From Paenibacillus terricola (GTDB lineage: Bacteria > Bacillota > Bacilli > Paenibacillales > Paenibacillaceae), in contig NZ_JACXZA010000001.1 of NCBI RefSeq assembly GCF_014779765.1, positions 1,054,001 through 1,118,000 of the forward strand: a DNA stretch of 64,000 bases, written 5' to 3'. Below are positions 12,693 through 44,126 of this stretch, one piece after another. Positions within the stretch are counted from its first letter, which is position 1. Each line of letters begins with the position of its first letter. The notes beneath the pieces are model-generated. The model made no database searches and was not told where the DNA came from. It was given only the letters and a program-made list of their open reading frames with translations. A program made the translations under genes and the position numbers.

Positions 12693-12974
12693 TTGAAAAT
12701 TTCTGACTTTCAGACCAAGGATGTCATCAACATCGTGGACGGGAAGAAGCTGGGTCAAGTAAGCGATCTGGAGCTTGATCTTCGTCAGGGCCGCATCGAT
12801 TCGATCGTCGTGCCGACGTTCACCCGATTTTTCGGCATGTTCGGCGGCGGCACCGACATTATCATTCCGTGGCGGAACATCGTAAAGATTGGCGCTGATG
12901 TTGTGCTCGTTCGTCTTGATGAAGCGAAGGCTGCTTATAAGACGGAGGAGGAAGAAACACAGGTGCGAATGTAA
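12693..12974 (+). CDS. YlmC/YmxH-family sporulation protein (PRC-barrel)
   Basis: This is a small PRC-barrel protein of the YlmC/YmxH family, found beside sigG and the ylm genes in spore formers. Its exact role is unknown. The sequence MKISDFQTKDVINIVDGKKL starts at TTG 12693 with GGTGAG just upstream. GTG 12684 and TTG 12669 are alternatives adding 3 or 8 residues. The region TRFFGMFGGGTDIIIPWRNI is the most characteristic part. A terminator follows directly, so it is monocistronic. Confidence 0.85.
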   Translation: MKISDFQTKDVINIVDGKKLGQVSDLELDLRQGRIDSIVVPTFTRFFGMFGGGTDIIIPWRNIVKIGADVVLVRLDEAKAAYKTEEEETQVRM

Positions 12975-12975
12975 G

Positions 12976-13016
12976 GAGAGCCGGGGCGCTTGACGTGCGC
13001 CGGGCTCTCTTTTTTC
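12976..13016 (+). terminator. Terminator after the ylmC-like gene
   Basis: GAGAGCCGGGGCGC pairs with GCGCCGGGCTCTC and is followed by TTTTTT. Confidence 0.88.
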
Positions 13017-13075
13017 TGTTCCGTCGTACTGCCCTATGGTAAACTGAACTGAATAGACATAAAGAGGTGGTACGA

Positions 13076-13927
13076 ATGGAATCATTTGTATGGGATCAGG
13101 CTAAGCAGGCGGGTGCATCGCTCATGCGGCTTGAAGCTTGGGAGAATACAGATGCCGGTATTACGGCTGGCTTCACGACGAGAATTGGCGGCGTTAGCAC
13201 GGGCTGCTGGTCGTCGTTGAATATGGGGCTGCATGTCGGTGACCGCAATGAGGATGTTGTGAGAAACCGGCAGCTTCTGTCCGAAGCGATTGGCTGGCCA
13301 TTCGAGGCCTTTACATGTGCGGAACAGGTGCACAGCGACAACGTGCATATTGTAACAGTTGACGATATGGGCAAAGGCCGGGATTCGCGGCATTCGGCGC
13401 TGCAGGATACGGATGCGCTGATAACGAATGTTCGCGGCGTGCTCTTAGCATCCTTTTATGCAGATTGCGTACCCCTGTACTTCTACGATCCCGTTCATGA
13501 GGCCGTTGGACTGGCGCATGCCGGATGGAAAGGAACAGCTGCTGAGATCGCGTGTCGGACGGTAGAAGCGATGAAGAAGGCATTCGGGACCAACCCATCG
13601 CAGCTGCGAGGCGCGATCGGGCCTGCTATTGGCGGGTGTTGTTATGAGGTGGACGGTCCTGTCATCGGTCGGATGGAGGAGCTGTGCAGCAGTTTTGCGA
13701 ATTTAACGGCAGTTGATTCGATGATTCGCCGGACGCAAGACGGCAAGGCGATGCTCGACTTGAAAGAAATCAACCGACAGATTATGATAAAAGCAGGAAT
13801 TTTGCCGACTCATATCGAAATATCAACATGGTGTACCAGTTGTCGGACAGACCTGCTGTTCTCGCATCGAGCGGAGAAAGGTGCAACAGGCCGAATGGCA
13901 AGCTGGATTGGCATGGAGAAGAGGTGA
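13076..13927 (+). CDS. pgeF: Purine nucleoside phosphorylase YfiH/PgeF family (laccase domain)
   Basis: This is a YlmD/YfiH-family enzyme. Characterised members show purine nucleoside phosphorylase or adenosine deaminase activity, and E. coli PgeF also guards against wrong amino acids in peptidoglycan. The family zinc ligands are visible: His in EQVHSDNVH, Cys in YADCVPL and His in GLAHAGWKGTAAEI. ATG 13076 follows AGAGGTGG. The 283-aa length is usual. It starts the ylmD-ylmE-sepF-ylmG-ylmH-divIVA series known from B. subtilis, and the next gene follows within a few bases. Confidence 0.9.
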   Translation: MESFVWDQAKQAGASLMRLEAWENTDAGITAGFTTRIGGVSTGCWSSLNMGLHVGDRNEDVVRNRQLLSEAIGWPFEAFTCAEQVHSDNVHIVTVDDMGKGRDSRHSALQDTDALITNVRGVLLASFYADCVPLYFYDPVHEAVGLAHAGWKGTAAEIACRTVEAMKKAFGTNPSQLRGAIGPAIGGCCYEVDGPVIGRMEELCSSFANLTAVDSMIRRTQDGKAMLDLKEINRQIMIKAGILPTHIEISTWCTSCRTDLLFSHRAEKGATGRMASWIGMEKR

Positions 13928-13932
13928 ACCTC

Positions 13933-14640
13933 TTGTCGACGTTAACAGAACGGATACAAGATGTGGAACAATTAATTCAGGCAGCATGTGAGCGCAGTGG
14001 GCGCAGCCGTGATGAAGTGAACGTCGTCGCTGTAACAAAGTATGTATCGCTCGACAGCGTGCGTGACGTAGTCGCACATGGGGTTCGTCAGTTAGGGGAG
14101 AACCGCTGGCAGAACGCCAAGTCTAAGTGGGAAGCGCTGCAGGAACTGCCGCAGTCGGAAGCGCCGGTATGGCATTATATCGGTTCGCTTCAGACGAACA
14201 AAGTGAAGGACGTCATCGGCAAGTTTACATACATTCATTCACTGGACAGGCTGTCGCTGGCGCAAGCCATCGCAGATCGAGCAGACAAGCTTGGCATCAT
14301 CGTTCCTTGCTTCATTCAAGTCAACGTATCAGGAGAGGAAAGCAAGCAGGGATTGGAGCCGGACGAAGTACCGGCGTTTCTACGCGAGTTAAGCCAGCTT
14401 CGGTCCATTCGGCCGATTGGCCTGATGACTATGGCGCCTTTCGAGGCAGAAGCGGAAGAGACGAGACCTGTATTCCGAGCGCTGAGGCAGTTGCGCGATC
14501 AACTCAATGAACTTGGCATTGTGGAGCAGCCGTTGACCGAGCTCTCGATGGGCATGTCCAACGATTTTACAGTGGCAATTGAAGAAGGAGCAACCTGGGT
14601 ACGTCTTGGTACGATACTAGTGGGGAAAGAGGAGGCATAA
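13933..14640 (+). CDS. PLP homeostasis protein, YggS family
   Basis: This is a YggS/YlmE-family PLP carrier, a single TIM barrel without known enzyme activity that keeps vitamin B6 and amino-acid pools balanced. The PLP-binding Lys lies in VVAVTKYVS near the N-terminus. LGENRWQNAKSKWEAL, WHYIGSLQTNKV and the phosphate-binding LSMGMSNDFTVAIEEGATWV are family hallmarks. TTG 13933 after GAGGTGAACC gives a 235-aa product. GTG 13924 is a possible alternative. It lies between pgeF and sepF. Confidence 0.9.
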   Translation: MSTLTERIQDVEQLIQAACERSGRSRDEVNVVAVTKYVSLDSVRDVVAHGVRQLGENRWQNAKSKWEALQELPQSEAPVWHYIGSLQTNKVKDVIGKFTYIHSLDRLSLAQAIADRADKLGIIVPCFIQVNVSGEESKQGLEPDEVPAFLRELSQLRSIRPIGLMTMAPFEAEAEETRPVFRALRQLRDQLNELGIVEQPLTELSMGMSNDFTVAIEEGATWVRLGTILVGKEEA

Positions 14641-14643
14641 GTA

Positions 14644-15114
14644 ATGAGTGTAATGAATCGTTTCATGAATTTTTTCGGTCTGCAAGATGAGGAAGAAATC
14701 ATTGAACACGAGAAAGTAGCACAGCCGCAGCAACAGCATGCTGAGGAACACGAGAATGATTTTGAAACCTCGCCTTTCGAAGCACGTAAACAATCAAAGA
14801 ACTCCAATATTGTGAGCATCCACTCGCAGAAGAATGTTCGGGTTGTGTTGAACGAACCACGTTCATTCGAAGAAGCGCAGGAAATCGCCGATCATCTTCG
14901 TGCCCGCCGCGGCGTTGTTGTCAACCTGCAGCGTGTGCCAAGCGATGTTGCGAAACGGATTTTTGACTTCCTTCTTGGCACGCTTTATGCGGTCAGCGGA
15001 ACGATGAACCGTATCGGACCAGGCATTTTCTTCTGTGCGCCAGAGAACGTGGAAATTCAAGGTACCATCTCCGAGCTGCTAGTGGACGAACAGGATTACA
15101 AACGAATGAGGTGA
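14644..15114 (+). CDS. sepF: Cell division protein SepF
   Basis: SepF forms rings that bundle FtsZ and, with FtsA, anchor it to the membrane. The 156-aa protein starts with the amphipathic membrane helix MSVMNRFMNFFGLQDEEE. It then has an acidic, Gln/Glu-rich linker (about residues 15-60) and a folded SepF domain (about 62-150, including RSFEEAQEIADHLRARRGVV and DFLLGTLYAVSGTMNRIG). It is 3 bp after the yggS stop. The start and length match the family. Confidence 0.94.
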   Translation: MSVMNRFMNFFGLQDEEEIIEHEKVAQPQQQHAEEHENDFETSPFEARKQSKNSNIVSIHSQKNVRVVLNEPRSFEEAQEIADHLRARRGVVVNLQRVPSDVAKRIFDFLLGTLYAVSGTMNRIGPGIFFCAPENVEIQGTISELLVDEQDYKRMR

Positions 15115-34833: not shown

Positions 34834-36555
34834 ATGAAATTAGGTTTTCGAACGAAAGTTATTGGTTTAATTTCGATTCCATTCTTACTGTATATCGGGA
34901 CGTCCATTTACTACCCGTTATACGTCAATTCAACGGTAGATAAGTTGAAACAGCAGCTCTACATCACGTCTTACTCAGCCAATAACCAAATCATGAACGC
35001 CGACCGCGATGTCTATCAAGCGTTATCCGCTTTTACATTTATCGATCTTGGCAATCCGAAAGGACCAGAACGCGACAATGCGATGAAGGATGTCAAAGAG
35101 AATATTCAACAGGCCAATGATCGTATGGCTTCTGCCCGCCAGTTGATGGAGAAAGCAGGCCTTATGAACATTACAGCACAAGGTCAGGATCGACCTGTAT
35201 CGGCATTGTTCAAAGATTTTGATTCCGGATTTAACGCTTGGGCATCGGCGGTTATTCAAACGCTCGAGAGCGGCAAGCATGGCGATGCTGAGCTGTATGC
35301 ATTATTCCAAACAGGCAGAAGCGGCATCGATGCGCTGGGTGACATTCTGGATCAATATGCGCTTGAAGCGCTTGAGAAGATTGATAACGATAATAAGGCT
35401 TCGCAGAAATCAGCGATTATTGCAGCAGCAATCATAGTCATTGTCATCGTACTGCTCATGTACTTCGTCATGCGTCTGCTTAGCAGATCCGTGCGCAGTG
35501 CAGCCTCCAAGACGTCCCGTATTATGCAGGGCGACTTGACGGTTGAATCAGAAGCTCGTTACAGCTCGGACGAGTTGGGTACGATCTTGAAGAGTACGGA
35601 TGCGATGATTGGCAACCTGAAATCGATGATCGGCGGCATTATCGACAACGCTAACAAGGTAGCGGAATCCTCTGTATCCCTACATACCGCATCTCGTGAG
35701 ACGGCAGCTTCTGCTAATCATATCGCGGAACATATCCAGGAAGTAACGAGCGGCACGGAAGTGCAAGCTAGAGGTGCCGAAGAAACAGCCCGTGCCATTG
35801 AAGAGATGGCAATCGGGATTGCCCGCATCGCTGATAATACTTCGGAGATGGCATCGCAGTCGACCGACACTTCGTCACATGCTGCAGAGGGACGGGAGTC
35901 TCTTGATCATATGATCGGGCAGATGAATGAGATGAAAGCGATTATGACAAGTCTAGCGAGTTCGATTCAGACGTTGGAGAATCACTCGGGCACGATCGGT
36001 AAGATTGCGGATGAAATTACGGCGTTTGCTTCACAGACGAACATTTTGTCGCTGAACGCTTCGATCGAAGCTGCACGTGCAGGGGAGCATGGCAAAGGCT
36101 TTGCGGTTGTTGCCGGCGAAATTCGGAAATTGGCGGAGCAGTCATTCCAATCCGCGGACAGCATCCGGGATCTTGTAACGGCTACGATGACGGATATATC
36201 GAGTGCATCCAGCTCCATGAACCAGACACTCGTTGAGGTAGATAAGAGCAGCAGCACGATCGAGGCGCTCGATGATCAATTCATGCGGATCGCGGATGCG
36301 ATTCAGCGGATGTCCGATCAACTGCAGGAGAACTCGGCGATTTCGGAGCAAATGTCGGCTAGCGCGGAACAGGTGAGCGCATCGATGGAGATGTCCTCGC
36401 AGGCAGCGGCTGATAATTTGGGCAAAATCCAATCGGTTGCAGCGGCAACCGAAGAACAGTTGGCGCTTATGGGCAGCATGTCGGAATCGGCGGCGCAGCT
36501 CAAAGAAATCGTGAGCGATTTGTCTAACGCCGTCTCGCACTTTAAAGTTCGATAA
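34834..36555 (+). CDS. Methyl-accepting chemotaxis protein
   Basis: This transmembrane chemoreceptor has 573 aa. It has a membrane span at about residues 9-30, an extracellular four-helix-type sensor (about 31-188), a second span (about 190-212, rich in Ile/Val), a HAMP domain (about 213-265), and a long signalling coiled coil whose tip carries [20 protein letters not shown] and [18 protein letters not shown]. There is no NWETF-type tail. It is monocistronic between two terminators. The ligand is unknown; the sensor is not a Cache domain that I can recognise. Confidence 0.94.
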
Positions 36556-36638: not shown

Positions 36639-36772
36639 ATTTTCGAAAATATGAGCGATTTTTAATTGTTTTAGGAAAATTATCGTAATTGGGCGTAACT
36701 TTTCTTCCAATGCTTCCGTCTATAGGATAAATGAGAAAAATGAAAAGGATAGGCGGAGGTGACAACCCCTCT

Positions 36773-37630
36773 ATGGGTTTATTGACCACATGGAAAACAA
36801 AATCGAAAACCAAAAAAGCTCAGCGTAACTCTACTTCATCCGGGGCATCCGATGGCGATTTTGCGCAGCATGAAATCGCCGTTTCCGCTGACAGCCTTGT
36901 GAAGCAGGATGCAGCAAGCGAACTCGCCGCCATTCCGAAGAACAACCGAATCGTGTCGAGTGAACCAGTCATGACCGTCAGCGGCGTTGAACGTACGTTC
37001 AGCGTAGGCGGTCAGCCGCTCCATGTCCTGAAGGGCATTACGATGCAGGTGCTTCCTAGTCAGCTTGTGATGCTTAGAGGCCGCTCTGGCTCTGGCAAAA
37101 CAACGCTGCTGAATATGCTGGGGGGATTAGACCAGCCGAGCAAAGGCGAGATCTGGTTTGATGGCAAGCCGTTCCATAAGCTTGGCGACAATGACAGGAC
37201 GAAGGTCAGACGGATGGAAATCGGTTTTATTTTCCAAGCCTATGCGCTGATGCCGCTTCTGTCTGCTTGGGAGAACGTAGAACTGTCGCTTCGTATGGCT
37301 GGTGTGCCGAAGAGAGAGTGGAAGGAACGCGTAGCCCATTGCCTGCGGCTTGTAGGCTTGGAGAAGCGGATGCATCACCGTCCGTTCGAGCTATCTGGCG
37401 GCGAACAACAGAGGGTAGCGATCGCGAAGGCGATTGCGCATCGTCCCAAGCTGCTGCTGGCGGATGAACCGACAGCCGAGCTGGATTCGCAGATGGCTGC
37501 GCAAATCATGGCAGTTTTCCAAACAATTATCGCAACAGAACAAGTGACTATATGCATGACAACGCATGATCCTACAATTTTGGAGGTTGCCGACCATGTT
37601 TACGAGATGGTGGATGGGAAGTTTATTTAA
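36773..37630 (+). CDS. ABC transporter ATP-binding protein (MacB/LolD type) with N-terminal extension
   Basis: This is the first ATPase of a five-gene operon. ATG 36773 follows GGAGGTGA (36755-36762). ATG 36731 lies in frame but is not preceded by a site. The 285-aa product has a basic, low-complexity N-terminal extension of about 60 residues (KTKSKTKKAQRNSTSSGAS) that MacB-type ATPases normally lack. Walker A is GRSGSGKTTLLN, the signature is LSGGEQQRVAIAKA, and Walker B is LLLADEPTAELD, with AEL where GAL is usual. Its 3' end overlaps the adaptor gene by 35 bp. Confidence 0.9.
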   Translation: MGLLTTWKTKSKTKKAQRNSTSSGASDGDFAQHEIAVSADSLVKQDAASELAAIPKNNRIVSSEPVMTVSGVERTFSVGGQPLHVLKGITMQVLPSQLVMLRGRSGSGKTTLLNMLGGLDQPSKGEIWFDGKPFHKLGDNDRTKVRRMEIGFIFQAYALMPLLSAWENVELSLRMAGVPKREWKERVAHCLRLVGLEKRMHHRPFELSGGEQQRVAIAKAIAHRPKLLLADEPTAELDSQMAAQIMAVFQTIIATEQVTICMTTHDPTILEVADHVYEMVDGKFI

Positions 37631-38666
37631 GCGGAGTGCAGCTGTGGTGCTCAGCTTATCATTATTAACGGCCGGAGGCTGCGGCTTGCTGCCGAAGGAG
37701 CAGGAGGAGGAGAAGCTTCCCGAGATTGCGCCTCCTACGATATCGAAGAAGCCGGAATACGATGTGACGACAGCTACGCTCGAGACGAAGGTATCGTCCG
37801 TTGGCAAGGTTATTTCGATGCAGGAGGAGACGTTGTTCTTCACGCTCGATGGCAAACGGCTGAAAGAGCTCTATGTTAAGAACGGTCAGGATGTAAAGGC
37901 CGGCGATCCGATCGGCGAGCTGGACGTGGACGATTTGCGCAAACAGCTGCGAACGAAAAATCTTGATTTCCGTCGTAAAGAAACAAGTATGAAGGAAACG
38001 TTGAAGAAGAAGGACGAAATGGATCCTGTTGATTTCGAGAGTGCAGTTATCGATTTCGAGGAAAGCCGTCAGGAGCTGACCGATCTGCAAGAAGAGATTG
38101 ATAAGTCGGTGTTGACATCTCCTTTCTCGGGCACGATCGTTGCGCTTAACGTGCAGAAGGGCGACGAGATCAAAACCTATCAGCCGATCTGTATCGTTGC
38201 GGATACGTCCCAATTGACAGCTGCAGCGAAGCTGACGAAGGATCAGCTGGCGAAAGTGTCGCTGGGTATGGAGGTCGTTGCCGACATTAACGGCATCGGT
38301 CAAGTGAAAGGCGTCGTTAAGCAGCTTCCGCTCCCGACGTCGACGGATAATAACAACGGTCAGAACGGCGGCGGTCAGCAGAAGCCGGAGCGTCCGGAGG
38401 ACTATTTGCTCGTTAAGCTCTCGAAGATGCCAGAAGGGCTTCTAAGGGGAACGCCGCTCTCGCTCAACATTATCGTGAATCGCAAGGAGAATGCGGTTGT
38501 TATACCGCTGTCCGCATTGCGCAGCGTTGGCGCCCGCCAATATGTGCAGGTTATCGAGGCGGATGGTACGAAACGCGAGGTTGACGTCGAGGTCGGCCAA
38601 CAAACTTCTACCGAAGCGGAAATCCTGAAAGGATTGACACCGGGACAGAAAGTCGTAGGTCGATAA
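37596..38666 (+). CDS. Lipoprotein membrane-fusion adaptor (HlyD/MacA-like)
   Basis: This is a membrane-attached adaptor for an FtsX-type ABC transporter. ATG 37596 has GGAGG at 37582-37586. The N-terminus is a lipoprotein signal with lipobox LTAGGC, so the mature protein starts at Cys. Then come a lipoyl/biotinyl-like half (YVKNGQDVKAGDPIGELDVD), a helical hairpin (RRKETSMKETLKKKDEMD), the second lipoyl half (SPFSGTIVALNVQKGDEI) and a beta-barrel with a short Asn/Gly-rich insert (DNNNGQNGGGQQKP). In a monoderm it probably reaches from the membrane into the wall. Confidence 0.9.
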   Translation: MFTRWWMGSLFKRSAAVVLSLSLLTAGGCGLLPKEQEEEKLPEIAPPTISKKPEYDVTTATLETKVSSVGKVISMQEETLFFTLDGKRLKELYVKNGQDVKAGDPIGELDVDDLRKQLRTKNLDFRRKETSMKETLKKKDEMDPVDFESAVIDFEESRQELTDLQEEIDKSVLTSPFSGTIVALNVQKGDEIKTYQPICIVADTSQLTAAAKLTKDQLAKVSLGMEVVADINGIGQVKGVVKQLPLPTSTDNNNGQNGGGQQKPERPEDYLLVKLSKMPEGLLRGTPLSLNIIVNRKENAVVIPLSALRSVGARQYVQVIEADGTKREVDVEVGQQTSTEAEILKGLTPGQKVVGR

Positions 38667-38669
38667 GCT

Positions 38670-41585
38670 ATGGGGATCCCGTTGTTTCGATTTCTGTATC
38701 GCAAAATGTGGAACACCCGCTGGCTGACGTTCAGCACGTTCGCCGGGCTGGTACTTGCAGTTGCGTTCACGACTAGTATTCCGATGTACGCCGATGGAGC
38801 GCTGAAGCGCGTTGTCGCGCAGTCGCTGCAGGAGAAAAGCGCTGGTCTGCCAGCAGGCTCATTGCTCATTCGTAATCAGGCGGCAGCCGGGTCGCAGACT
38901 GATCTTACAGCGCTTAAGGACGTAGACCAATATATACACACGGATGTACCGAAGCAAGTCGGTTTCCCGATATCAACAGATGTACGCACTTATTCCATTC
39001 GTAGTTCTGAGATTGTACCGGTTGATATTACGAAGGTGGATCCTAGCCGTGTGCGCCAGATGTCGCTCATGACGATGTCTGGTCTGGAAGATAAGGTCGA
39101 TCTGTCGCAAGGCCGTTGGTTCGTTGATTCAGCAAGCAGCAGCGGTGACGGCGTTATCGAGGCAGTCATGCTGGAAGAGGCGATGTTCCGCAACGATATT
39201 CATATCGATGATGAATTCGAATATCCCGTATATGGCGGACTTGATCTGACGCTGAAAGTAAAGATCGTTGGCGCGTTCAAGCCGAAGTTGGATACCGATC
39301 CCTATTGGTATCAAGGCATCGAAGGACTGATGGGCGGTCTGCTTATTGGCGACAAAACGATGGTAGATGGTCTGATGGGTCAGCAGCATATCCCGATGCA
39401 TACGGCGAACTGGTATTATGCTTTTGATTTAAGAGAGATTACAACGAGCCAGCTGTCACCGCTTAGCCGGACGCTGGAGCGCATGAATATCGACTTGTAT
39501 CAGCATATGAAAGATACGAAAGTCGAGATTTCATTCGCGTCGACGCTCTCGGAATTCCGTAAGCAGAGCATCCAGCTGCAGACGCTGCTGTTCACGCTGG
39601 CGGCGCCAATGATTGCGATGGTGTTCTTCTTCATCGCGATGAATGCGCGGCAATCGCTCGACAAGCAGCGCTCCGATATCGCTGTATTGCGAAGCCGCGG
39701 TGCACGGACGAAGCAAATCATTCTGATCTACCTGATAGAAGGTTTGCTGCTAGGTGTCTTGGCTCTTGCAATTGGACCGCTTCTAGGCTGGTTCATGGCG
39801 AAGAGTATCGGATCCGCGAACGGCTTCCTTACATTCGTCGATCGCAAATCGATTCCGGTCGGTTTCACGATGGATGCGATTATCGCTGGAGTTGCGGCAG
39901 TTGTGCTAGCCATTCTTGCGACTGTCATTCCAGCTATCAGCTATGCGCGCATGTCGATCGTCGTCTACAAGCAGCAGATGGCGCGTTCCGATCGCAGGCC
40001 GGTATGGCAGCGCTGGTTCTTGGATGTTGCGCTGCTTGGCGTTGCCGGATACGGATGGTATTTGTTCAATGAGCGGCAAATGATTTCATTCAAGACCGGC
40101 ATGACAACGGACCAGTTGAACGTACAGCCATTCCTGTTCTTCGTGCCTGCCATTGCAATATTCGCATTGGGACTATTCTTCCTGCGCATATTCCCATGGT
40201 TGCTGAAGCTATTCAACTGGCTGGGACGCAAGCTGCTTCCGGTGCCGCTTTATCTGACATTGGTTCAGCTGTCACGTTCGTCGAAAGGCTATTATCCGTT
40301 AATGACTTTGCTCATTCTGACGCTTGGTCTTGGCGTGTACAACGCATCTGCAGCGCGTACCATTGACCTGAACTCGACAGAACGGACGCAGTACAAATAC
40401 GGTACGGACGTTATTATGCAGACGGTTTGGGAAGGCACGGCTGAAGTCAGCATTTCGGACAATAGCAATAACGGCGGCGGCGGTCAAGGTGGCGGCCAAG
40501 GTGAAGGTTCGGGCGGCGGCGGTAACGGTGGTGGCGGTGGTCAAGGTGGCGGAGGCCAATCGGGCGGAGGCAACGCACCGACACGGATCAACTACTCTGA
40601 ACCGCCATTCCAGCTATTCAAGGAGATGGATGGCGTTGAAGCCGCAGCGCGTGTTCTGCAGACCAAAGGCAGCGTAAGGGTTGCTGACCGTTCGATAGGT
40701 CAAGGAACGCTGATGGGTATCGATAACGTCGATTTCTCGAAAGTCGCATGGTTTGGCAATGATCTATTCCCGGTCCATCCGTACTATTATTTGAGGAATC
40801 TAGGTTTGTTCGAGCAAGCGGCAATTATACCATCGTCGGTTGCTGACAAATATCAGCTTAAGCTTGGCGATACGATTTCCGTTGGTTTAACGGACGGCGT
40901 CATCGAGTTTGCGGTCGCAGGTATCGTGCCTTATTGGCCGACGCAGTATCCAGATAAGTCGCCTTTCATTATTGCAAACCTGGATTACATCTACGATCAA
41001 GTGCCGATTATTCCTTATGATGTATGGCTGAAGATGAAGCCGGGCGCTCTGGTTGGTCCGGTCATGACAGAGCTGCAGAAGCAGGGCGTAGAGCTTGCAT
41101 CAGTAACCGATGCGAGAACGGAGCTGCTGACGCAATCGAAGCATCCGACGCGCGGCGGCGTATTCGGTATTCTGAGCCTTGGTTTCCTCGTATCGATTAT
41201 CGTGTCGTTGACGGGCTACGTATTGTATTGGTTCTTCAACTTGTCTGGTCGCGTCGTTCAGTTCGGCGTGCTTCGAGCTATGGGGCTGTCGAGAAGACAG
41301 CTGACCGGTATGCTGCTGCTGGAGCAGTTGTTCACGGCAGGCTTATCGATAGGGCTCGGTATCTTAATTGGCAAAATTGCGAGCTTGCTGTTCCTGCCAT
41401 TCCTGCAGACGACGGACAACGTCGAGAATTCGGTTCCGCCGTTCCGCGTTGTATTCGATTCGCAGGATACGAACCAGCTGTACTTGGTTGTTTCAGTCAT
41501 GATGGTGCTTGGCGCTATGCTGCTGCTGCTTCATATCCGCAGGCTGCGCGTTCATCAGGCAGTCAAGATGGGAGAGGAGCGGTAG
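38670..41585 (+). CDS. Large FtsX-type ABC permease with Gly-rich insert
   Basis: This is a 971-aa permease of the FtsX/MacB superfamily with two FtsX-like halves. It has an N-terminal span, a first extracellular domain, a three-span block (about residues 305-440), further spans (about 450-575), a second extracellular domain and a last three-span block (about 830-960). Residues about 600-637 are nearly pure Gly/Gln/Asn, a flexible tether inside the second outer domain. It starts 3 bp after the adaptor gene. The substrate is unknown. Confidence 0.9.
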   Translation: MGIPLFRFLYRKMWNTRWLTFSTFAGLVLAVAFTTSIPMYADGALKRVVAQSLQEKSAGLPAGSLLIRNQAAAGSQTDLTALKDVDQYIHTDVPKQVGFPISTDVRTYSIRSSEIVPVDITKVDPSRVRQMSLMTMSGLEDKVDLSQGRWFVDSASSSGDGVIEAVMLEEAMFRNDIHIDDEFEYPVYGGLDLTLKVKIVGAFKPKLDTDPYWYQGIEGLMGGLLIGDKTMVDGLMGQQHIPMHTANWYYAFDLREITTSQLSPLSRTLERMNIDLYQHMKDTKVEISFASTLSEFRKQSIQLQTLLFTLAAPMIAMVFFFIAMNARQSLDKQRSDIAVLRSRGARTKQIILIYLIEGLLLGVLALAIGPLLGWFMAKSIGSANGFLTFVDRKSIPVGFTMDAIIAGVAAVVLAILATVIPAISYARMSIVVYKQQMARSDRRPVWQRWFLDVALLGVAGYGWYLFNERQMISFKTGMTTDQLNVQPFLFFVPAIAIFALGLFFLRIFPWLLKLFNWLGRKLLPVPLYLTLVQLSRSSKGYYPLMTLLILTLGLGVYNASAARTIDLNSTERTQYKYGTDVIMQTVWEGTAEVSISDNSNNGGGGQGGGQGEGSGGGGNGGGGGQGGGGQSGGGNAPTRINYSEPPFQLFKEMDGVEAAARVLQTKGSVRVADRSIGQGTLMGIDNVDFSKVAWFGNDLFPVHPYYYLRNLGLFEQAAIIPSSVADKYQLKLGDTISVGLTDGVIEFAVAGIVPYWPTQYPDKSPFIIANLDYIYDQVPIIPYDVWLKMKPGALVGPVMTELQKQGVELASVTDARTELLTQSKHPTRGGVFGILSLGFLVSIIVSLTGYVLYWFFNLSGRVVQFGVLRAMGLSRRQLTGMLLLEQLFTAGLSIGLGILIGKIASLLFLPFLQTTDNVENSVPPFRVVFDSQDTNQLYLVVSVMMVLGAMLLLLHIRRLRVHQAVKMGEER

Positions 41586-41588
41586 ACG

Positions 41589-42464
41589 ATGATAGATTGC
41601 GAAGGTTTAGTCAAAATTTACAAAACAGATGATCTCGAGGTTGTCGCCCTCCAAGGTTTGAACCTGCGGGTTGAAGATGGCGAGATGATGGCCATCATCG
41701 GCAACAGCGGCAGCGGTAAGTCAACGCTTCTGAACATTCTCGGCGGACTGGACCGGCCATCGGCCGGTTCCGTCAGAGTCGGGCCATGGGATCTGCTCAA
41801 GATTACGGAAGAGCAGATCGTTGAATACAAGCGTGATACCGTCGGATTCATCTGGCAGAACAACGCGCGCAACCTGCTGCCGTACTTGTCGGCACTCGAG
41901 AATGTCGAGATGCCGATGATGCTTGCCGGCCGCACGGATCGCGCTTATGCGAAGCAGCTGCTGGAATGGGTTGGCTTGAAGGAGCGCATGTACAATAAGC
42001 TCCATCAGTTGTCGGGCGGTGAGCAGCAGCGCGTTGCGCTTGCAATCGCGCTGTCCAACCGACCGAAGATGCTGCTCGCGGATGAACCGACAGGATCGGT
42101 CGACACGCGTACGAGCGATATGATCATGGATATTTTTCGCCGAATGAATCGTGAACTTGGGGTTACGATCGTTATCGTTACGCATGACTTGTCGCTTGCA
42201 AGCAAGGTTGACCGTGTTGTCGCAATCCGTGACGGCATGACGAGTACTGAGTTCATTAAGCGAAATCATCATCTGGATGAAGAGATCGCGGCAGGGGCCA
42301 GCGGGCTGAAGCAGGTTCACGAGGAATACGTGGTCATTGACCGCGTCGGCCGGATGCAAATTCCGAAGGAATATTTGTCCGCGCTGAACATTAAGGATAA
42401 GGCATCGATCGAGTTTGATGGCGAACGCATCGTCATCACGCCGCCTAGAACATTGGAGGGGTAG
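41589..42464 (+). CDS. ABC transporter ATP-binding protein with C-terminal AbrB-like domain
   Basis: This is the second ATPase of the operon, 291 aa. Walker A is GNSGSGKSTLLN, the signature is LSGGEQQRVALAIA, and Walker B is LLADEPTGSVD. After the ATPase core, residues about 245-291 read EEYVVIDRVGRMQIPKEY and continue NIKDKASIEFDGERIVI, the pattern of the swapped-hairpin AbrB/SpoVT/MazE DNA-binding fold. ATG 41589 follows GAGAGGAGCGG. One ATPase may serve the permease while the other, or the tail, links it to gene control; this is inference. Confidence 0.9.
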   Translation: MIDCEGLVKIYKTDDLEVVALQGLNLRVEDGEMMAIIGNSGSGKSTLLNILGGLDRPSAGSVRVGPWDLLKITEEQIVEYKRDTVGFIWQNNARNLLPYLSALENVEMPMMLAGRTDRAYAKQLLEWVGLKERMYNKLHQLSGGEQQRVALAIALSNRPKMLLADEPTGSVDTRTSDMIMDIFRRMNRELGVTIVIVTHDLSLASKVDRVVAIRDGMTSTEFIKRNHHLDEEIAAGASGLKQVHEEYVVIDRVGRMQIPKEYLSALNIKDKASIEFDGERIVITPPRTLEG

Positions 42465-42469
42465 ATAAC

Positions 42470-44068
42470 ATGGAGAAGAGAGTTTGGATGAAACGTGCTG
42501 CAGCGACGACGGTCGCTCTGACAATGCTTGTGCCGTTGATGGCGGCATGCAGCAAGGGAGAGAAAGATAGTTCAACGGAGAAGCGGGTGCTGCGTATCGG
42601 CACGCTGTATGGCGGCAAGGACAATGAACCTTGGTTCCGCCAACAATATACGGATACGTTCGAATTCACGCATCCGAATATCGAGCTTGAGATCGTTGGC
42701 GCGATCAACAATGATGATTCGCGATTCCAGACGTACGATCCGAACAACCAGCAGAAGCAGCCTGACGTTTATGAAGAATTGAAGAAGATGTTGACCGGTC
42801 AGAATCCAGTAGACGTTGTAGTGGTTGACTATACGCAGCTGAAACGTTTGGTCCAAGACAATCTGCTTCAACAGCTGGATCCATTGATCGCACAAGATAA
42901 ATTCGATTTGACGGACTATGTACCAACCGTATTGGATGGCATCAAGCAAGTGGGAGACAACAACCTGTACGCACTGACACCGACGTTCAGCGCTTCCGCA
43001 TTGTTCTATAATAAGAAGTTGTTCCAAGACGCAGGCGTCAGCGTTCCGACGGACGGCATGTTCTGGCCAGACATCGTGGACTTGGCACGTCGCGTCTCCA
43101 AGGGCGAGGGCAAGGACCGCAAATACGGTCTCTCGTTCAACCGCTGGCCGGGCAGCAACGGCATCTATGACGTTCAGAATTATGCAAGCACGCTGCAGCT
43201 CAAGACGTGGGACGACAAAGGCGAGAAGATGCTCGTGAATACGCAGGGCTGGGCAGACGCGCTGACGGTCGTTGCAGGCCTATATAAAGATGATATTATT
43301 CCGGACTCCGATGACGTTCAGAAGATGAATGAAAACAAAGAGGGCGGCGATGCCGGCATCTACAATCCAGTAGATAACGACTGGTTCCTGAGCGGCCGTG
43401 TTGCAATGACAATCTCCGACTTCAGCTATGTGAATGAGCTGACGCTGGCGAAAGACAATGCATCGAAGATCAAAAACTTTACTCCAGTCGATTGGGACGT
43501 AGTCACCGTTCCTCAGCATCAACAGGCAGCAGGCATCGGCGGCAACATCTATTACAGCCAGTTGATGAGCATTAATGCTAAAGCGCAGAACCCGGATGAC
43601 GCTTGGGAGTTCATCAAGTTCACGAACAGCCCTGAGCTCGCGAAGCTGAAGTCGAGAAGCCAATACGAGCTATCGTCCCGCAAATCGTTCATTAAGGCGT
43701 CTGAAAGTGCTACGCCGTTCAACATTGCAGCGTTCTATTCGCTGAAGCCAATCCCGCCTTCAGCGACGGATATGGATAAACTGTACCGCGAGAAGCCAGG
43801 CATCTGGGAAGCGACCAACGCCGGCAATGATGCATTCAACGACGTCGTCAAAGGCAACAAGACGGCGAAGGAGGCGCTTGCAGATTGGGAGACGAAAGGT
43901 AACGCCGTTCTCGAGAAGCTCAAGGCGAACCCGAACGGCGGCGATGGCGGCGGTACTATTGATGTGAAGCCGCTCGCAGAAGCTTCTGGTGAAGCAACGT
44001 CGACGGATTCGGCTGAAGCGACAGAGTCGACTGAAGCAACATCAACGGATGCTGCTGTTGCACGATAA
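42470..44068 (+). CDS. Extracellular solute-binding lipoprotein (family 1-like)
   Basis: This is a 532-aa binding protein. Its signal peptide ends in the lipobox VPLMAAC, placing Cys at about residue 25. The body has the fold pattern of sugar-type (MalE-like) binding proteins: VLRIGTLYGG, NPVDVVVVDYTQLKRL, ALFYNKKLFQDAGVSVPTD, and SGRVAMTISDFS. It ends in a low-complexity Ser/Thr/Glu/Ala tail (TSTDSAEATESTEATSTDAA). It closes an operon that otherwise encodes an FtsX-type, export-like transporter, an unusual partnership. No importer-type permeases follow. Confidence 0.88.
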   Translation: MEKRVWMKRAAATTVALTMLVPLMAACSKGEKDSSTEKRVLRIGTLYGGKDNEPWFRQQYTDTFEFTHPNIELEIVGAINNDDSRFQTYDPNNQQKQPDVYEELKKMLTGQNPVDVVVVDYTQLKRLVQDNLLQQLDPLIAQDKFDLTDYVPTVLDGIKQVGDNNLYALTPTFSASALFYNKKLFQDAGVSVPTDGMFWPDIVDLARRVSKGEGKDRKYGLSFNRWPGSNGIYDVQNYASTLQLKTWDDKGEKMLVNTQGWADALTVVAGLYKDDIIPDSDDVQKMNENKEGGDAGIYNPVDNDWFLSGRVAMTISDFSYVNELTLAKDNASKIKNFTPVDWDVVTVPQHQQAAGIGGNIYYSQLMSINAKAQNPDDAWEFIKFTNSPELAKLKSRSQYELSSRKSFIKASESATPFNIAAFYSLKPIPPSATDMDKLYREKPGIWEATNAGNDAFNDVVKGNKTAKEALADWETKGNAVLEKLKANPNGGDGGGTIDVKPLAEASGEATSTDSAEATESTEATSTDAAVAR

Positions 44069-44086
44069 GGAAAACCCGCAATCGCT

Positions 44087-44126
44087 AACCCGCAATCGCA
44101 AATACGATTGCGGGTTATTTTTTTGG
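44087..44126 (+). terminator. Terminator of the five-gene transporter operon
   Basis: AACCCGCAATCG (44087-44098) pairs with CGATTGCGGGTT (44105-44116), followed by ATTTTTTT. An extra copy of the left arm (44073-44084) stands in tandem just before it and could compete for pairing. Confidence 0.88.

What the first reader, a model, noticed from the sequence alone, without database searches (positions are those of the whole stretch)
36773..44068. Five-gene operon joining an FtsX-type exporter to a sugar-binding-type lipoprotein
Seen: ATPase, lipoprotein adaptor, 971-aa permease, second ATPase and a family-1-like solute-binding lipoprotein, with junctions of 35-bp overlap, 3, 3 and 5 bp, ending in one terminator. 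Known: MacAB-type systems use one ATPase, an adaptor and a permease, and do not use MalE-like binding proteins; importers with such proteins use different permeases. Inference: this is a composite machine in which the binding protein may deliver a wall or surface ligand to the mechanotransmitting permease, or sense it. Two different ATPases could form a heterodimer.
Basis: partly seen in the sequence, partly recalled or inferred. Interest (0 to 1): 0.8.

Follow-up and report, generated by a model that had tools for sequence, protein, structure and literature searches.

The report
Sugar-binding protein joined to FtsX-type machine
Paenibacillus-family bacteria carry a conserved five-gene operon that ties a MacAB/YbbP-like envelope machine with two different motors to a lipid-anchored sugar-binding protein of the kind normally used for food uptake; how the pair works is untested.

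Summary
It is not local chance. In the 126 Paenibacillaceae genomes whose permease and binding-protein positions were both listed, a binding protein lies just past A2 in all. Of 66 named loci with an ortholog permease, 64 keep all five genes. The permease is YbbP-like (10 predicted TM helices, two MacB-like outer domains). An ECF-sigma-type promoter motif precedes A1 in 72 of 85 ortholog upstreams. Against a fixed partnership: some genomes of two related genera keep the binding protein alone after pyrE, at least two genomes keep the machine without it, and 14 named clusters with 31-34%-identical permeases show none. The four-gene core occurs elsewhere beside other extracytoplasmic proteins. 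Most likely this is a type VII ABC mechanotransmission machine whose saccharide-recognising partner is the binding protein. Direction, ligand and physical contact are inferred. New variant of a known kind; the paper searches made found no description.

The parts
36695..36720 (+). ECF-sigma-type promoter candidate, GTAACTTTT-N13-CGTC (followed by TATA)
   Evidence: Strict pattern occurs once in the 64-kb window on either strand and in 72 of 85 ortholog upstreams; dinucleotide shuffles mean 0.23, maximum 2 of 85; reverse strand 0 (pattern drawn up after seeing the sequences). CGTC is the sigma-M -10 consensus in B. subtilis (PMC6827917, passage).
36773..37630 (+). A1: ABC ATPase, 285 aa, best NCBIfam relatives LolD, FtsE, DevA, MacB
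   Evidence: ABC_tran 1.7e-34; the NCBIfam hits shown are all below their curated cut-offs; Walker A, Walker B and H-loop in 21 of 21 orthologs; signature [LM]SGGEQQR and Q-loop in 21 of 21.
37596..38666 (+). MacA-like membrane-fusion (adaptor) lipoprotein, 356 aa
   Evidence: HlyD_D23 3.3e-11; RND_mfp above curated cut-off; best PDB relative putative MacA 4dk1, 2.1e-15; 35-bp overlap with A1.
38670..41585 (+). YbbP-like permease, 971 aa, ten predicted long membrane helices and two MacB-like outer domains
40455..40574 (+). Gly-rich disordered loop (residues 596-635) near the start of the second outer domain
   Evidence: pLDDT under 50; aligned stretch 23-57 residues, 25-61% Gly in 21 of 21 orthologs.
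41589..42464 (+). A2: second ABC ATPase, 291 aa, best NCBIfam relative LolD, with C-terminal tail
   Evidence: ABC_tran 4.8e-32; Walker A, Q-loop, signature, Walker B, H-loop in 21 of 21.
42333..42449 (+). AbrB/MazE-like tail of A2 (about residues 249-287)
   Evidence: PF04014 0.0026, below its cut-off; best PDB hit Abh 2fy9, E 0.024; motif in 21 of 21 orthologs and in distant loci such as L079, L080, L157.
42470..44068 (+). SBP: family-1 solute-binding lipoprotein, 532 aa
44086..44117 (+). Intrinsic terminator-like hairpin closing the operon
   Evidence: 13 pairs, then TTTTTTT.

Best explanation
A type VII (FtsX/MacB-superfamily) ABC machine of the YbbP kind. One permease carries both 4-TM halves and two outer domains, is powered by two different ATPases (most simply one A1 and one A2 per permease), and works with a MacA-like lipid-anchored adaptor. 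ATP-driven closing of the cassettes moves the outer domains and so acts on something in the outer leaflet or wall zone. The sugar-binding lipoprotein is the partner that recognises the saccharide part of that substrate or signal (a glycolipid, wall-polymer fragment or glycosylated toxin). It either takes the substrate from the machine or gates the machine when loaded. The operon is switched on from an ECF-sigma-type, envelope-stress-like promoter. Shown: gene content, conserved operon, fold classes, conserved promoter-like motif. Inferred: outward or mechanical action rather than import, saccharide ligand, SBP-permease contact, the sigma factor involved.
For: An SBP one gene downstream of the permease in 126 of 126 genomes listed in both searches, one of them with a second SBP in tandem. 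All five genes in 64 of 66 named loci with a permease over 50% identical and in 20 of 20 selected loci from 16 genera. Permease closest to YbbAP and BceAB. Both ATPases motif-complete. The SBP has a standard oligosaccharide-receptor fold and an invariant lipobox Cys. Where the machine is absent the SBP diverges more: 32-41% identity to the window SBP in four lone-SBP loci (carB 83-84%), against 45-54% in machine-bearing G005, G006, G008, G012, G016 and G018 (carB 83-86%). In two distant Bacillota loci the same core sits beside TolC-like OEP genes (L084, L079), which hints at outward action. ECF-type motif in 72 of 85.
Against: The SBP survives without the machine in g7 and g13 genomes, and the machine without the SBP in G017 and G185. 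None of 14 named clusters with a 31-34%-identical permease shows a window-type SBP within 5 kb. The divergence contrast is clear for g7 (32%) but modest for g13 (40-41%) beside G005 (45%), and G010, with machine, has SBPs at 46 and 42% (carB 80%). In L079 another MacB-like permease and an ATPase gene lie just before the OEP genes, which may belong to that pump; L065, L085 and L104 show no OEP. The ECF motif is nearly unique in its genome: 5 matches against 4 in the reversed control, so no regulon was found. No ligand, contact or direction was tested. The permease model is only moderate (pTM 0.64).
Confidence: 0.42

Rival explanations
1. Sensor reading: the SBP is a ligand-occupancy sensor and the machine is a signalling or wall-remodelling device (FtsEX- or BceAB-like) that moves no solute. 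Loaded SBP changes ATPase turnover or a hydrolase outside.
For: Type VII systems include mechanotransmitters with an outside partner, such as FtsEX-EnvC (PMC12646458 section 16). Related clusters L119, L132, L143 and L157 have kinase and response-regulator homologs beside them (blastp only). ECF-type motif.
Against: No wall hydrolase or kinase is among the five genes. The MacA-like adaptor and the OEP genes beside the core in L084 fit a conduit better.
Confidence: 0.25
2. Co-transcription only: the SBP is an independent sugar receptor or scavenger that shares the stress promoter but not the machine; it feeds another importer or senses sugar alone.
For: Lone SBP after pyrE in g13 (L170, L171) and g7 (L172, L173), and machine without SBP in G017 and G185.
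Against: A2-SBP spacing of -4 to 8 bp in 17 of 20 selected loci (starts chosen by script); pairing in 126 of 126; greater divergence where the machine is absent; the two g13 copies appear by eye to lack a lipobox.
Confidence: 0.22
3. Importer: the SBP delivers a sugar to the FtsX-type permease for uptake, a new import route.
For: SBP_bac_1 proteins normally serve importers; the predicted fold is that of oligosaccharide receptors.
Against: No BPD_transp_1 match in the five operon proteins; the ATPases score best with LolD, not sugar-importer families. The permease's nearest structures (YbbAP, BceAB, MacB, LolCDE) are not known as solute importers (recalled).
Confidence: 0.06

Closest known systems
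E. coli YbbAP-TesA (type VII ABC with a periplasmic partner)
   Different: YbbAP uses two copies of one ATPase and a hydrolase partner; here there are two different ATPases, a MacA-like adaptor and a sugar-binding lipoprotein.
MacAB-TolC and Gram-positive MacAB-like pumps (YknXYZ, Spr0693-0695)
   Same: MacA-like adaptor, MacB-like outer domains.
   Different: There, one ATPase type and half-size permeases that dimerise (recalled, and PMC5985334 passages). The word 'solute-binding' does not occur in that review's main text.
BceAB(S)
   Different: BceB lacks the first outer domain and partners BceS (PMC12646458 section 16); here there are two outer domains, no kinase seen beside the operon, and an adaptor and SBP.
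YtrBCDEF of B. subtilis
   Different: Two further membrane proteins (YtrC, YtrD); its 'binding protein' is the MacB-domain protein itself, and no MalE-type receptor or MacA-like adaptor is named in the passages read.
CUT1-type sugar importers (MalE-FGK, YesO)
   Same: The binding protein belongs to SBP_bac_1 and folds like MalE-type receptors.
   Different: No BPD_transp_1 match in the operon proteins; ATPases score best with LolD.

Membership tests
Type VII ABC (FtsX/MacB superfamily) | FtsX-fold permease with large outer domain(s) | tested here: met
   FtsX x2 and MacB_PCD; model and structure matches.
Type VII ABC (FtsX/MacB superfamily) | Mechanotransmission without solute passing through the membrane domain | not testable with these tools
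   Needs biochemistry or structures in several states.
MacAB-TolC | MacA-type adaptor in the operon | tested here: met
MacAB-TolC | Half-size MacB with fused ATPase, one ATPase type | tested here: not met
   Separate ATPases A1 and A2, fused double permease.
YbbAP-TesA | 10-TM duplicated permease with two outer domains | tested here: met
   against PMC12646458 section 10.
YbbAP-TesA | Two copies of one ATPase, TesA-type hydrolase partner | tested here: not met
   Two different ATPase genes; no hydrolase gene among the five.
BceAB | Only the second outer domain present; sensor kinase beside it | tested here: not met
   First outer domain modelled at residues 64-287; no kinase seen by eye among ORFs of 100 aa or more between pyrE and the tRNAs.
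CUT1 sugar importer | SBP_bac_1 receptor | tested here: met
CUT1 sugar importer | BPD_transp_1 permeases in the same operon | tested here: not met
   No match in any of the five proteins at E up to 1.
SpoVT/AbrB (swapped-hairpin) domain, A2 tail | Profile match above curated cut-off | tested here: inconclusive
   PF04014 18.1 bits against 24.7; 9 of 23 members at E up to 0.1; Abh 2fy9 E 0.024.
ECF-sigma promoter | AAC-type -35 and CGTC-type -10 at near-fixed spacing, conserved upstream | tested here: met
   72 of 85; AAC-type -35 recalled; transcription from it not tested.

The most novel reading that the evidence does not exclude
A four-gene type VII ABC core (A1, adaptor, YbbP-like permease, AbrB-tailed A2) is a reusable envelope motor whose outside partner is swapped between lineages: TolC-like channels in some Bacillota, family-5 binding proteins or a GH43-CBM6 protein in others. 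In Paenibacillaceae it has taken on a MalE-type sugar receptor as its substrate-recognition partner, so a receptor class built for import now serves an outward-acting, stress-induced machine.
Probability: 0.42. Interest if true: 0.78.

Novelty: new variant of a known kind. Interest (0 to 1): 0.6.

Why it matters
Solute-binding proteins are treated as a mark of ABC import, and type VII systems as motors whose outside partners are channels, chaperones or hydrolases. A sugar receptor locked into such a motor across a bacterial family would break that rule of thumb for annotation. It would give a direct handle on what these Gram-positive MacAB/YbbP-like machines act on, since the receptor's ligand can be identified with purified protein. 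The natural experiments found here (receptor alone, machine alone, both, neither) are ready-made comparisons.

Tried and rejected
Ordinary local adjacency: rejected. Importer reading: kept only as a weak rival. Strict dependence of SBP on the machine: rejected. ECF regulon in the own genome: the exact-pattern search gave 5 sites against 4 in the reversed control; of the other four sites, the two looked at (L223, L224) gave no clear theme. A first, tighter promoter pattern matched 41 of 85 upstreams; the pattern behind 72 of 85 was drawn up after seeing those sequences. First carB tree was spoiled by unoriented loci and was redone; it places g7 and g13 with full-set g6 at 85/91, below the starred level, so loss of the machine there is favoured over late insertion but not proved. 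First count of named loci (59 of 80) mis-set the permease end in some loci and was replaced. Two scripts stopped part-way (which left six of its 21 gene maps unprinted, after printing the coordinates I used). Literature: searches listed no paper that I recognised, from titles and abstract starts, as dealing with an FtsX/MacB operon with a solute-binding protein in Paenibacillus or an AbrB-tailed ABC ATPase. Text was seen in PMC12646458 (abstract, sections 10 and 16) and, as passages only, in PMC5985334, PMC8060467, PMC6827917 and PMC6767563. The ~710-aa exported protein beside class-II clusters had no PDB relative. Not done: mapping of SBP ligand-site residues, SBP-permease coevolution, genome-wide searches for A1, adaptor or A2 in the lone-SBP genomes.
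Full report
WHAT IS THERE. A1 starts at 36773 behind GGAGGTGA; the adaptor ATG at 37596 gives the 35-bp overlap; gaps of 3, 3 and 5 bp follow; a hairpin plus T-run ends the unit at 44086-44117. Upstream are carB, pyrF, pyrE (named by eye) and a chemotaxis receptor gene; downstream are tRNA-Met and tRNA-Leu. A1 and A2 score best with LolD, FtsE, DevA, YbbA and MacB models, all below curated cut-offs, and lower with sugar-importer ATPases. Both keep their catalytic motifs in 21 of 21 orthologs. The adaptor is MacA-like.

CONSERVATION. Of 295 family genomes, 257 have an SBP match at E up to 1e-30 and 229 a permease match at E up to 1e-120. One of the 229 (G117) is a paralog cluster, leaving 228. 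Counting the two tables by hand, 225 of these 228 have an SBP at E up to 1e-100, G215 has one at 8e-93 (two SBP frames after the permease in L210), and G017 and G185 have only distant hits. Positions are listed for 149 and 150 genomes. In the 126 present in both position lists, an SBP is on the same strand one ATPase gene downstream in 125 (888-988 bp); in the 126th (G116) the listed SBP is farther off because a tandem SBP lies in between. Twenty loci chosen from the hits to represent 16 genera all hold A1, adaptor, permease, A2, SBP in order; the A1/adaptor overlap is 29-41 bp in all 20.

SEPARABILITY. In one search no g7 genome and only G117 of g13 has a permease match. still lists an SBP homolog at E 1e-69 or better in 24 of their genomes (10 of g7, 14 of g13). 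In the four inspected (L170-L173) it is the next gene on the same strand after pyrE, about 0.2-1 kb away (a 116-aa ORF of doubtful standing lies between in L170), and no A1, adaptor, permease or A2 homolog was found in the 17-19 kb around it (pyrE recognised by eye there and). A profile search found no permease elsewhere in these four genomes. Identity to the window SBP is 41 and 40% (g13), 32 and 32% (g7), with carB at 83-84%. Machine-bearing genomes at similar carB identity (83-86%) have SBPs at 45% (G005), 47% (G012), 49% (G008, G018), 50% (G006) and 54% (G016); G010, at 80% carB, has 46 and 42%. So divergence is clearly greater in g7 and modestly so in g13. The two g13 copies appear by eye to lack a lipobox. 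G007, G042 and G117 have neither at the pyrE site, and G017 and G185 have the machine without the SBP. In a carB tree of 30 rows, g7 and g13 group with full-set g6 (85/91), and G017 with G185 (100/100) nest inside full-set genomes. The SBP therefore has some use without the machine and the machine without it, but the usual state over the family is the pair.

PROMOTER. A motif GTAACTTTT-N13-CGTC-TATA lies at 36695-36720. A first pattern found it in 41 of 85 ortholog upstreams. A pattern refined on those sequences (G[AT]AACTT, 13-15 bases, CGT[CT]) is in 19 of 21 and 53 of 64, 72 of 85 together, two genomes being counted twice; 100 rounds of dinucleotide shuffles average 0.23 with a maximum of 2; the reverse strand has 0; the 64-kb window has exactly one. 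In a fixed-pattern scan it occurs once in each of 34 of 224 loci and never twice. The CGTC -10 is the sigma-M consensus in B. subtilis (PMC6827917 passage); the TGTAAC-type -35 is recalled. Transcription is untested. The exact motif is not enriched in the genome (5 sites against 4 in the reversed control), and the strict form was not found at the four lone-SBP loci.

A2 TAIL. After the ATPase domain, A2 ends in a short segment whose core motif (hydrophobic-hydrophobic-D-x-x-GR-[LMV]-Q-x-P) is in 21 of 21 orthologs and in distant relatives such as L079, L080 and L157; the window reads VIDRVGRMQIPKEYLSALNIKDKASIEFDGERIVITPP. It resembles AbrB/Abh (2fy9, E 0.024) and Pfam MazE below cut-off. The Arg-Arg pair of Abh, recalled as part of the AbrB DNA contact, aligns with Leu and a variable residue here. 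This suggests a pairing rather than a DNA-binding role (inference). AbrB domains form swapped dimers (recalled), so the tail could join two A2 subunits. The A1:A2 heterodimer, natural for one pseudo-symmetric permease, is therefore likely but not settled.

OTHER PARTNERS. The four-gene core is wider than the pairing. A profile search found the permease in 13 of 398 phylum genomes, 9 of them outside the family. In related clusters the extracytoplasmic neighbour differs: two OEP (TolC-like) genes after A2 in L084 and before A1 in L079, where another MacB-like permease and an ATPase gene lie just before the OEP genes and may own them; two SBP_bac_5 genes before A1 in L078; a GH43-CBM6 protein before A1 in L008 and a GH43-like protein just after A2 in L176; an SBP_bac_1-like lipoprotein after A2 in L157 (25.6 bits against a cut-off of 26); a ~710-aa exported protein in L119, L132, L141 and L143. 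L065, L085 (a short contig) and L104 show the core with no obvious partner. These are single loci, not counted surveys. None of the 14 named clusters with a 31-34%-identical permease has a window-type SBP within 5 kb (L085 has only 1.8 kb to its end).

READING. The best-supported account is a type VII ABC machine of YbbP architecture with a MacA-like adaptor and two motors. Its Paenibacillaceae version has a sugar receptor as the outside partner and is probably induced by an ECF sigma factor under envelope stress. Type VII machines typically pair with an outside partner protein (PMC12646458 Discussion), which is the slot the SBP would fill. Contact, ligand and direction are inference. No description of this combination came up in the paper searches, which cover open-licence PMC papers only.

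Noticed in passing
G000 C11, locus L009 3239-14057: A paralogous FtsX permease (30% identical) lies directly after two other SBP_bac_1 lipoprotein genes, near an AraC-type two-component system, without A1, adaptor or A2 of this kind in the locus.
   Followed up: partly
L008 12077-14083 and L176 10207-13392: GH43 proteins (CBM6-bearing in L008) sit beside paralogous four-gene cores, suggesting a carbohydrate theme for the wider family.
   Followed up: partly
L010 4181-16994: Another paralogous core is followed by an ECF sigma factor and a DUF4179 protein and preceded by what look by eye like a LacI-type regulator and a sugar importer operon with an SBP_bac_1 gene.
   Followed up: no
L044 11412-13192: A 135-aa ORF matching only the A2 tail region precedes a second SBP copy, as if the tail and SBP had been duplicated together.
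   Followed up: no
L175 7336-15947: Three distant SBP homologs in G051 with no importer permease recognised beside them, near what looks by eye like a sensor kinase and a regulator.
   Followed up: no
L119, L132, L141, L143 about 12800-14960: A ~710-aa exported protein follows A2 almost flush in these clusters; no PDB relative, at most a sub-threshold DUF4352 match in the two scanned.
   Followed up: partly
window 34834-36555: A chemotaxis receptor gene lies between pyrE and the operon here, with a homolog at the same spot in L041 and L050; in L208, L209 and L214 pyrE is followed directly by A1.
   Followed up: no
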